From Rhizodiscina lignyota (lineage: Eukaryota > Ascomycota > Dothideomycetes > Aulographales > Rhizodiscinaceae), in contig ML978122.1 of assembly GCA_010015805.1 (NCBI GenBank), forward strand, positions 3,072,453 through 3,136,452: a DNA stretch of 64,000 bases. Direction: 5' to 3'. The position numbers were made by a program, and so were the translations under genes. The first letter of the stretch is position 1. Every line of letters begins with the position of its first letter. Shown here piece by piece: positions 33,527 to 36,434 of this stretch. The notes under the pieces were generated by a model. It had not been told where the DNA came from. It made no database searches and worked only from the letters and a program-made list of their open reading frames with translations.

Positions 33527-36434
33527 ATGTCAGACCAAGTTCACGACCACGAGCTGCAGCCTGAGGCTACTGAAGGCTTCAAGGTTGGCGAGAAGAAAAC
33601 CATCGACGAATATCAGAAGTTGGGTAAGCTTTAGATTTCATGTTCAATATTCCCGAGGCCATACCTGCCACCGCTGCATCATCGGACTACTGCCTTGGAT
33701 ACCACTGCCTTTGTGGATGACCCTCGATTATGCCTTCCAACGACGAAACACTGGACCAAAACAATGTCTTCTGGCCCTCAGGACTATGCATCCTCCACAC
33801 AAATTCCCGAGCTTCAACATCCCATACTCTCGCTCTTACCAATCATCTCAAATCGTGCGATATCTCTACACATATGCGATCGTTACTAGTTGCGATCGCT
33901 TTCATCTCATATCAAAATGTCGCTTGGCGTTCCCGGAAGAGTCCCCCCTATGCGAAAGCGAGACTGGTTCAGTCCAGCTGTCATTCCTCTCGCTATCAAG
34001 TTTTTCCCACATGCTTGCCGCAAGCTGCCTCACAAGATTTCCGAATGGCGCCGAGGGGACTCGCTGTTTGCACAGTTCTGGCGCCGAAGAGCTCAATCAA
34101 CATCCACATACTTGACCAACGAAGAAGATCCAACAATGTCCGGGGCTTTGTCACCAAGAGGGCGTAGGCCTAACCATGCTCTCCAAGCCGTCGAAGCCGT
34201 CAAAGCCAAAGTCCATAATCTCAAAGGAAGAAGACGTCTACCGGCCCGGGAAAGCAAACGCGGCCGTATTTTCGGAGCGTTCAAGATCAAAACAAAACGC
34301 AAGAAAACTCGGCCACCGCTTGATGGCTACGAGCAGGAGCAGGAGGCAATACAACCATCTCCTCCCGAAAGTCTAAAAGGGTCGGCTGTCTGTCCTTGCA
34401 ACCCCAGACGTTTTCCTCGACTTCGAGACAGCAGTGATGACGACAGTGACGTTGGCGATGTGCACACTTTGCAACTGGACAGCCATTGGTCTGTTTCAAC
34501 AAAGTCACAGAAGCAAATGACAAGATTACTTCCAACAATCACTTTCCAGGGCAGGCCTATATTCAGGAATCCATTTTCGCCGTCGGAAATCCTTCCAGAG
34601 GGCCGAATTGCTGTGGACAAGCAAAAATGCGACGGAACAACAAATGTAAAATTAGTCCAACCTCGTGAGCCGGACAGTGGGATAGGGTCGACCACCAAAC
34701 TTGTCCAATTTGAGCATCCGCCGGAGACCAGCCCTCAACTGGATCATCAACTGCCCGAACGGATGTCGCCTGTGTCTCAAAATATTGCTCGGGACACCTT
34801 ACGACGCCGCATCCGACAGGATTTCCATGAGTCGGTGGTTTTTATCAGGGGAGCAGGTATGCTAACATATTTCTTTCATGTCAGATGCAAATGATGAGTC
34901 CCTTCGTAAATGGAAGGAGTCTCTTGGCATTGGCTCTGGCACTAGTGTTTCTGACCCGAATGATGCGCGCAAGGTCGTCATCTTAAGTCTAGGCTTAGAG
35001 GTGAGCACTTCATCCATTTCAACTTCTTGTCCGACTGCAGAATGCTAAGTCAACCCAGGTCGAAGGCCGTCCCGACATCATAATCGACCTGAAGCAGCCG
35101 GGAGCGGTCGACAAGCTGAAGGACCAACCGTTCACGATCAAGGAAGGATCGACGTTCAGGATGAAGGCTATCTTCAGAGTTCAACACCAGGTTCTCTCGG
35201 GCCTGAAGTACCTTCAGGTGGCAAAGAGGATGGGGATGAGCGACAAGATGCAGGAGATGATCGTAAGTTTCGCATTGATTCATATATTTGAGCAGCACGA
35301 CAGTGCCCCTCCATGGACTTCTGCCCACACTTTTCGCTCATTGCACTCTTTCATCGATCCCCGGAGACATGCTATTGCCATATCCGTTTACGTTACGCAA
35401 AGACGGCCGCGAGCTAGGGTATGTGCTGACGCTATCACAGGGAAGCTACAGTCCGAACACCACGGACAAGCCAACTTACGAGAAGAAGTGTCAGTAATCT
35501 CCTCTTCTTCTGCTGTTAAATCTACATGCTCTTCTTTTTCGTTTATTCCCACGCCGCCCGAAGGACTGCATACCAGGAAATTTCGGCCCACGTTCCGCGA
35601 GCACGAGCCCAATGTCGACGAAGGCCGCATTAACAAGATTGGCGTCCTCTTCGCCGAGGCCAATTTTATTCTGAATGGCTTGCGTCGGACTAATCCCAAT
35701 AGTCCAAATAGTGAGTATGCGGCGCCCCATCAACCGAACGGATTTCAGCGTGGATATTCAGGATTGCATCCGTGCAACTGCCCTGTGACGCCTGGATGTC
35801 TACAACTGCCGCAGGCTCAGCCATTCAACCTCCCTATTGCGGATGGCATGCAACATACGCCTGATCCAGCGTTCTATCAGCATCCACATGCTTCACTGGT
35901 ACCTGGCGTTACTGCACCTAATGGCTGGCATCCTCCACCGGCTCCACCGTTCTACCCGCCTCCATATCCCTGGCCGACTGGATACGCCCCTGGTCCCGCG
36001 TTCTACCCGCCACCATACGTCTGGCCATATGGGTGCCCCCGTGTGATGTACGGTGCGCAACACCCACTTGCCCAGGCGTTCCACCAGCCTCCTCATGGGA
36101 CGACCGGCTACCATCCCCCTCCGATCAATGGCGCTCCACACCTGGATTCCCCGCCGCTGAACACGCAGTCCCCACTCTCCCGTAATGGACATGACTACTA
36201 CGAAGATGATGTTTACAGTGATGAGGATGGATTGTTTGTGTTTTCTATCTGCATCGCAATATGGTATTGAGCCTTGAATCGCTGACATCTGTTTTTGTTA
36301 CAGTCGAACCCCAGACCGCCCCGACCGGAATGATTGCTCGTGGCCACTATAACGCGGTTTCCAAGTTCGTCGACGACGACAACGAGACGCATCTCAAGTT
36401 CGAGTGGAGCTTCGACATCAAGAAAGACTGGTAA
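33527..36434 (+). CDS. rdi1: Rho GDP-dissociation inhibitor (RhoGDI)
   Basis: Exons 33527-33623, 34885-35000, 35059-35262, 35441-35489 and 36304-36434 encode 198 residues, the normal RhoGDI length. Family blocks are in order: DEYQKLDANDESLRKWKESLG (the N-terminal switch-binding arm), KEGSTFRMKAIFRVQHQVLSGLKY, SYSPNTTDKPTYEKKF, and GHYNAVSKFVDDD...EWSFDIKKDW at the end. RhoGDI extracts prenylated Rho GTPases such as Cdc42 and Rho1 from membranes and holds them GDP-bound. Introns 2 and 3 are 58 and 178 bp, but introns 1 and 4 are 1261 and 814 bp, far above the rest of the window, and both hold long open frames (see the interleaved candidate). The gene itself looks intact. Confidence 0.93.
33917..36270 (+). 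CDS. Candidate gene interleaved with RhoGDI (or alternative-exon isoform)
   Basis: RhoGDI intron 1 holds a frame open from 33890, with ATG at 33917 in an AAAATG context, for 313 codons to a GTATGC donor at 34857. Intron 4 holds another open frame to TGA at 36268-36270. Joining 33917-34856 to 35495-36270 (acceptor TGTCAG) keeps phase and gives 571 residues. Part 1 is basic (KTKRKKTRPP) then Ser/Asp-rich; part 2 has FREHEPNVDEGRINKIG followed by a Pro/Tyr-rich region (PPPAPPFYPPPYPW). The chosen acceptor overlaps the RhoGDI exon 4 donor, and the whole model is inference. No family is recognised. Alternatives are longer RhoGDI isoforms or two unrelated chance frames; long open length with biased but protein-like composition argues against pure chance. 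Confidence 0.4.

What the first reader, a model, noticed from the sequence alone, without database searches (positions are those of the whole stretch)
33527..36434. RhoGDI is split by two giant introns whose open frames can form a second, interleaved gene
Seen: RhoGDI introns 1 and 4 are 1261 and 814 bp, while most of the roughly 40 introns I modelled in this window are 38-111 bp. Intron 1 has a 313-codon open frame from ATG 33917 to a GTATGC donor, intron 4 a long frame ending at TGA 36270, before the last RhoGDI exon. Both splice junctions are phase 1, and 33917-34856 plus 35495-36270 gives exactly 572 codons including the stop. RhoGDI exons 2-4 would then lie inside the intron of the second gene. 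Inference: two same-strand genes are interleaved, or one locus makes mutually exclusive proteins.
Basis: partly seen in the sequence, partly recalled or inferred. Interest (0 to 1): 0.75.

Follow-up and report, generated by a model that had tools for sequence, protein, structure and literature searches.

The report
Possible gene inside a RhoGDI intron
In this fungus the first intron of the gene for RhoGDI, a regulator of Rho GTPases, carries a long open frame that may be a second protein gene, and the related fungus Aureobasidium appears to carry a conserved coding stretch in the same intron, but the two-piece interleaved gene first proposed is not supported.

Summary
The sequence facts are right. 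RhoGDI introns 1 and 4 are 1261 and 814 bp, and hold open frames that 0 and 2 of 2000 shuffles reach. The proposed join 34856/35495 is weak: the intron-1 frame has its own stop (34892-34894), the donor lies 28 nt before RhoGDI's acceptor over a CTAAC motif, the acceptor lies inside RhoGDI's exon-4 donor, and 166 of 480 GT/AG pairs keep the phase.

New: in Aureobasidium, 6 of 11 long RhoGDI clusters carry a stretch between exon 1 and exon 2, hence in the same intron; it is 71-92% identical in five pairs chosen of 55. Elsinoe, three Trypetheliales, Neofusicoccum and isolate NU459 have extensions joined at exon 2, location not shown. None clearly resembles this window's ORFs.

Best reading: a same-strand, fast-evolving coding unit nested in intron 1 (ATG 33917, strong start context). 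Unproven: its codon score is below all 32 training ORFs and within the range of non-coding shadow ORFs, no homologue was found, no RNA could be tested. The intron-4 frame looks more coding-like; its start is unknown.

The parts
33527..33623 (+). RhoGDI exon 1 (phase-1 donor GTAAGC at 33624)
   Evidence: BLASTP to the 5 exon-1-bearing Aureobasidium clusters then held: 61-71% over 27-36 residues in four, 44% over 61 in the fifth
33624..34884 (+). RhoGDI intron 1, 1261 bp, host of the first ORF
33917..34894 (+). Intron-1 ORF: 325 codons plus stop TGA; start context CAAAATGTC; stop lies 10 nt inside RhoGDI exon 2
34665..34670 (+). GTGAGC, donor-like, phase 1; would join the first 249 codons of the ORF to RhoGDI exon 2 across a 220-nt intron (rival model)
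34857..34884 (+).
   Evidence: sequence printed
34885..35000 (+). RhoGDI exon 2
35059..35262 (+). RhoGDI exon 3
   Evidence: 67-79% identity in 16 of 18 hits, 50 and 54% in the other two
35441..35489 (+).
35490..36303 (+). RhoGDI intron 4, 814 bp, host of the second ORF
35497..36270 (+). Intron-4 open frame (257 codons plus TGA), proline/tyrosine-rich with four F-Y/H-x-x-P-Y/H repeats; coding-like periodicity, mainly from 35848 on; true 5' start unknown (first in-frame ATG 35848)
36304..36434 (+). RhoGDI exon 5 with stop

Best explanation
RhoGDI intron 1 most likely houses a same-strand, rapidly evolving protein-coding unit. Shown: an improbably long open frame from ATG 33917 to TGA 34894, in a start context that marks long ORFs in this genome; and, from protein models, a conserved stretch in the same intron of Aureobasidium. 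Inferred: a promoter in 33624-33916 starts a second transcript that reads this ORF as its first cistron and runs into RhoGDI exons 2-5, sharing RhoGDI's 3' end, while transcripts from the normal promoter splice exon 1 to exon 2 and discard the ORF. Each RNA of the locus would thus give RhoGDI or the nested protein. The intron-4 frame is probably a separate, lineage-specific coding piece whose start is not known.
For: ORF length 0 of 2000 shuffles. The start matches CAMMATGNC (consensus recalled) as do only 10 of 1108 + strand ATGs in the window; in 264 kb of this genome 6 of 38 first ATGs with this context open 200 codons or more, against 85 of 5299 without it (this ORF included). The sense frame scores best of six. 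Aureobasidium: 6 of 11 long RhoGDI clusters have exon 1, then the extension, then exon 2; in five pairs chosen of 55 the extension is 71-92% identical with 1-4 gap runs, RhoGDI being 96-99% (in P0006, P0009 and P0011 the compared string includes the exon-1 peptide). NU459's extension resembles the second half of Aureobasidium's (4 of 1000 shuffles; hhalign P 0.007; BLASTP E 0.086). Models that fuse the extension to exon 2 use differing junctions (by eye), as expected if predictors force a fusion.
Against: No homologue among 1802 candidates of about 173-549 aa, no Pfam domain, no clear similarity to any relative's extension (the strongest hint is a phmmer stretch in Trypethelium P0016 with domain E 0.0099 against 12 sequences, whole-sequence E 0.18). 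Codon score -0.012: below all 32 training ORFs (minimum -0.008) and only at the 76th percentile of 38 non-coding shadow ORFs. Codon-position chi-square 10.8: p 0.100 against 1000 random open frames, and 0.02 of 48 coding pieces score as low. Periodic Markov score 4.4 bits per 750 nt, under the 5th percentile (6.2) of 61 coding chunks. Lone-sequence structure model of low confidence. The NU459 match fails for the first half (304 of 1000). Sordariomycete models (P0026-P0028) also carry extra sequence before exon 2, so predictor artefacts at this intron are not confined to Dothideomycetes. No transcript or close-relative DNA could be examined.
Confidence: 0.45

Rival explanations
1. Alternative first exon: the ORF is spliced in frame to RhoGDI exon 2, giving a long RhoGDI with a lineage-specific N-terminal region in place of the usual regulatory arm.
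For: Relatives are annotated this way (extension joined at or near ...NDESLRKWK in Aureobasidium, Elsinoe, three Trypetheliales, Neofusicoccum, NU459). In the window, GTGAGC at 34665 is phase 1 and would use RhoGDI's own acceptor with a 220-nt intron; all 3 sites matching GTRNGY or GTATG in the ORF are phase 1.
Against: The relatives' junctions differ from model to model, and the Aureobasidium extension continues beyond the junction chosen in some models (by eye). The ORF here has its own stop. The donor nearest exon 2 is only 28 nt away. No RNA evidence.
Confidence: 0.2
2. The long frames are fortuitous: unusually large introns with few stops and no protein product.
For: No homologues or domains. 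Intron 1: weak periodicity, codon score below all training ORFs. Both frames score within the range of 38 shadow ORFs (76th and 84th percentile, maximum 0.054). The relatives' long proteins were found because they are long, so other species' introns may lack ORFs.
Against: Length beyond shuffles for both; start context of the intron-1 frame; strong periodicity in intron 4 (0 of 1000 random open frames; part may come from its repeats); conserved stretch at the same place in Aureobasidium.
Confidence: 0.25
3. One reading: one two-exon gene, 33917-34856 joined to 35495-36270, interleaved with RhoGDI, whose exons 2-4 lie in its intron.
For: Both frames open and phase-compatible. The intron-4 frame has coding-like periodicity but no good start of its own. 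RhoGDI's exon-4 donor is the poor GTCAGT here, whereas the read-through residues of six relatives' models fit GTAAG (P0006, P0018, P0019, P0022, P0037) or GTGAG (P0013); P0002 and P0010 do not (by eye).
Against: Acceptor at a purine-rich exon end with no T tract (sequence); the codon block just after it (35503-35562) scores -0.20, though such 20-codon blocks are noisy; 166 of 480 GT/AG pairs would keep the phase; no homologue of either frame.
Confidence: 0.1

Closest known systems
Intronic nested protein-coding genes (human KTI12 with TXNDC12, from section headings of PMC3192792, nesting recalled; Drosophila 2mit in tim2, abstract start of PMC3786989)
   Same: A second coding unit inside a host intron; nesting can lead to intron retention and exonization (abstract of PMC3192792)
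   Different: Here on the host's strand (2mit is on the opposite one), in a compact fungal genome, with the ORF running into the next host exon; no transcript shown
Long 'E set domain-containing protein' RhoGDI models of Aureobasidium
   Same: Long stretch between RhoGDI exon 1 and exon 2 in 6 of 11 clusters, same intron position
   Different: No detectable sequence similarity to the window's ORF
Tuber borchii RhoGDI gene (PMC2362126, passages read)
   Same: RhoGDI with an N-terminal regulatory domain; intron-containing gene
   Different: Its five coding-region introns are 57-145 bp (plus 78 bp in the 5' UTR), with no large hosting intron

Membership tests
RhoGDI (host gene) | Homology to PF02115 Rho_GDI proteins over the whole domain | tested here: met
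   Exons 2-5 are 81% identical over 99% to Aureobasidium P0005, PF02115 precomputed for that hit; Pfam was not run on the window protein itself
Intronic nested gene | Coding frame lies within a host intron | tested here: met
   33917-34884 of the ORF is in intron 1; the last 10 nt lie in exon 2
Intronic nested gene | Frame is protein-coding | tested here: inconclusive
   Length and start context favour it; codon score, periodicity and lack of homologues do not
Intronic nested gene | Own transcript from an internal promoter | not testable with these tools
   No RNA data
Alternative first exon of RhoGDI | Phase-compatible donor within reach of exon 2 | tested here: met
   GTGAGC 34665, phase 1, 220-nt intron
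Alternative first exon of RhoGDI | Splice junction seen in RNA | not testable with these tools
   No RNA data
Interleaved two-exon gene (reader) | Phase-compatible frames | tested here: met
   572 codons, but 166 of 480 site pairs are compatible
Interleaved two-exon gene (reader) | Credible acceptor at 35494 | tested here: inconclusive
   Purine-rich, inside RhoGDI's donor; the splice-site matrices were themselves unreliable
Family of the Aureobasidium intron-1 extension | Sequence similarity to that extension | tested here: not met
   hhalign P 0.65; 296 and 259 of 300 shuffles score as high for its two halves

The most novel reading that the evidence does not exclude
RhoGDI intron 1 is a long-lived cradle for same-strand nested coding units in Dothideomycetes: different orders carry different or unrecognisably diverged proteins there, sharing RhoGDI's 3' end, so that promoter choice makes the locus yield either RhoGDI or the nested protein; in this lineage a second frame has arisen in intron 4, possibly as part of the same interleaved gene. 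(Placement inside intron 1 is shown only for Aureobasidium, from protein models, and for this window.)
Probability: 0.15. Interest if true: 0.75.

Novelty: new variant of a known kind. Interest (0 to 1): 0.45.

Why it matters
If real, a housekeeping Rho regulator shares its locus with a fast-changing protein. That would couple their expression, explain the conflicting long RhoGDI models in public databases (which look like predictor fusions), and give a tractable case of gene birth inside an intron in fungi. One fungal gene-prediction paper calls nested genes, there of the opposite-strand kind, rare (passage in PMC4363200).

Tried and rejected
Transposon or duplicated-gene origin: both frames gave one place each in the 33.4 Mb genome. 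Homology of the window frames to relatives' extensions: nothing convincing by BLASTP, phmmer or hhalign (hhalign of the intron-1 frame against seven profiles P 0.15-0.73, of the intron-4 frame against three P 0.29-0.87; reversed and shuffled controls P 0.21-0.90). Scans for relatives with exon 3 in prokaryote contigs (44 pattern matches) and viral contigs (2): no relative. Splice-site matrices from a heuristic intron set: that set was smaller than its shuffle expectation (115 against 155), so its scores are not used. Structure of an Aureobasidium long protein: mean pLDDT 44, pTM 0.24; a helix-strands-helix pattern occurs twice, but confidence was too low for a fold search. Its apparent internal repeat is weak (34 of 1000 shuffles). 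Structure of the window ORF alone: mean pLDDT 46, no use. Direct splice of 34857 to exon 2: a 28-nt intron, judged too short (general knowledge). Papers: 59 papers held at least 3 of 4 terms, 15 listed; 2; 0; 21, 10 listed; 1, unrelated; I noticed no paper on this arrangement in those listings.

Full report
What is there. The window lies in a 33.4 Mb genome, fungal by its gene content and hits (inference). RhoGDI is encoded by five exons at 33527-36434, with introns of 1261, 58, 178 and 814 bp. Intron 1 contains an open frame with ATG at 33917 that stays open to TGA 34892-34894, 10 nt into RhoGDI exon 2 (325 codons). Intron 4 contains an open frame ending at TGA 36268-36270.

Is it more than chance? 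In 2000 dinucleotide shuffles of each intron, 0 reach the intron-1 open frame (331 codons within the intron) and 2 reach the intron-4 one (259). Codon statistics were trained on 32 ORFs of at least 400 codons from 264 kb of this genome. In both introns the sense frame is the best of six. But the intron-1 score (-0.012) is below all 32 training ORFs and at the 76th percentile of 38 shadow ORFs (open frames lying inside longer ORFs, taken as non-coding); the intron-4 score (0.005) is above 12.5% of training ORFs and at the 84th percentile of shadow ORFs. Codon-position periodicity: intron 1 chi-square 10.8, p 0.100 against 1000 random open frames, median of 48 coding pieces 39.5; intron 4 chi-square 33.3, 0 of 1000, median of 59 coding pieces 32.4. 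The intron-4 signal comes mainly from 35848 onward (chi-square 28.5; upstream part 11.3, p 0.099), where proline-rich repeats contribute; among four repeat copies the pairwise differences by codon position are 10, 10 and 17. A periodic Markov model gives 4.4 (intron 1) and 20.2 (intron 4) bits per 750 nt, against a mean of 29.7 and a 5th percentile of 6.2 in 61 coding chunks. Block scores in intron 4 rise from about 35563-35623 on, but the blocks are noisy (one at 35743 is -0.33).

The start. ATG 33917 is the first ATG of its frame, 27 nt after a stop, in the context CAAAATGTC. The fungal consensus CAMMATGNC is recalled, but it was tested here: in 264 kb, 6 of 38 first ATGs with it open at least 200 codons, against 85 of 5299 without it (this ORF included). 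In the window 10 of 1108 + strand ATGs have it.

The proposed junction. The GTATGC at 34857 runs directly into CTAAC, a pyrimidine tract and the acceptor of RhoGDI intron 1, 28 nt in all. The acceptor at 35494 is the CAG inside RhoGDI's donor GTCAGT, preceded by a purine-rich exon end. Of 16 GT x 30 AG = 480 combinations tested, 166 keep the phase. A donor-like GTGAGC at 34665 is phase 1 and could join RhoGDI exon 2 over 220 nt.

Homologues. The intron-1 protein has no hit (1802 candidates of about 173-549 aa), no Pfam family and no second place in the genome. The intron-4 frame likewise has no Pfam family and no second place; a search with the 421-codon frame that also covers RhoGDI exon 3 gave 18 hits among 2971 candidates, all 18 with the precomputed RhoGDI domain. 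These hits, and the 35 of a RhoGDI-anchored search limited to roughly 263-838 aa (281 candidates, E up to 1e-10), include long RhoGDI proteins: 11 clusters from Aureobasidium, one from Elsinoe batatas, three from Trypetheliales (order recalled), one from Neofusicoccum parvum and one from Dothideomycetes sp. NU459. In 6 of the 11 Aureobasidium clusters the typical exon-1 peptide precedes the extension and exon 2 follows it (P0006, P0008, P0009, P0010, P0011, P0036), so the extension lies in the same intron. For the other genera the models lack exon 1, so the place of the extension is not shown. In five pairs that I chose of 55 possible, the Aureobasidium extension is 71-92% identical over 268-426 residues with 1-4 gap runs, RhoGDI being 96-99% (three of the proteins include the exon-1 peptide in that string). 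In the all-against-all listing of the ten clusters then held, the main pieces are 65-100% identical. I read this as coding constraint; no DNA was available to measure it. The NU459 extension matches the second half of the Aureobasidium one (4 of 1000 shuffles; the first half 304 of 1000; hhalign P 0.007; BLASTP E 0.086). The three Trypetheliales extensions match each other (E 3e-30, 1e-8, 3e-5). None clearly matches the window's frames; the strongest hint is a phmmer stretch in P0016, domain E 0.0099 against 12 sequences, whole-sequence E 0.18.

Limits of that comparison. The searches favour long proteins, so they say nothing about how many Dothideomycetes lack such an ORF. Sordariomycete models (P0026 Pleurostoma, P0027 Pyricularia, P0028 Niveomyces) also carry extra sequence before exon 2, and some unnamed metagenome proteins (P0002, P0013, P0041) look like plain read-through from intron 1 into exon 2 (by eye). 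Extra sequence at this place is therefore not by itself evidence of a gene; conservation is.

Fusion or nested gene? The relatives' models disagree on how the extension reaches exon 2: some leave at ...QDLHQ, others go on through RKQT..RGK..RFFRWM, and P0012 enters exon 2 late (by eye). Differing junctions with a conserved sequence continuing past some of them suggest that gene predictors force a fusion onto a separate ORF. This is inference. The alternative first exon remains a live rival.

Mechanism proposed. Promoter in 33624-33916 (inferred), translation from ATG 33917 (supported by context), stop at 34894 (sequence), RNA 3' end shared with RhoGDI (inferred: the ORF leaves no room for a terminator inside the intron). 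Nested human genes are reported to cause intron retention and exonization in their hosts (abstract of PMC3192792), so RhoGDI output could be affected. A fungal gene-prediction paper calls nested genes rare, speaking of genes overlapping a larger one on the opposite strand (PMC4363200, passage). The Tuber borchii RhoGDI gene has coding introns of 57-145 bp (PMC2362126, passage), so large hosting introns are not universal.

Verdict. Without RNA or sibling genomes the protein-coding status of both frames is open.

Noticed in passing
35490-35495: RhoGDI's exon-4 donor is the non-consensus GTCAGT here, whereas read-through residues in six relatives' models fit GTAAG or GTGAG; P0002 and P0010 do not (by eye).
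   Followed up: partly
35497-35560: Strongly pyrimidine-rich tract at the start of intron 4, followed by CCAG at 35576; it could be a promoter CT tract or a splice acceptor tract, but that acceptor is phase 2 and fits none of the upstream exon ends considered.
   Followed up: partly
outside the window: protein hits P0029, P0032-P0035: Zygomycete RhoGDIs (Backusella, Rhizopus, Gilbertella, Mycotypha, Cokeromyces) are listed with additional Pfam domains PF14604/PF00018/PF07653 and PF00787 (SH3 and PX, names recalled) in one protein.
   Followed up: no
outside the window: Aureobasidium extension, e.g. P0007 residues 150-380: The extension shows a possible two-fold internal repeat (34 of 1000 shuffles); three Aureobasidium proteins scanned gave no Pfam family above cut-off in it (VSG_B at E 0.19 in P0011).
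   Followed up: partly
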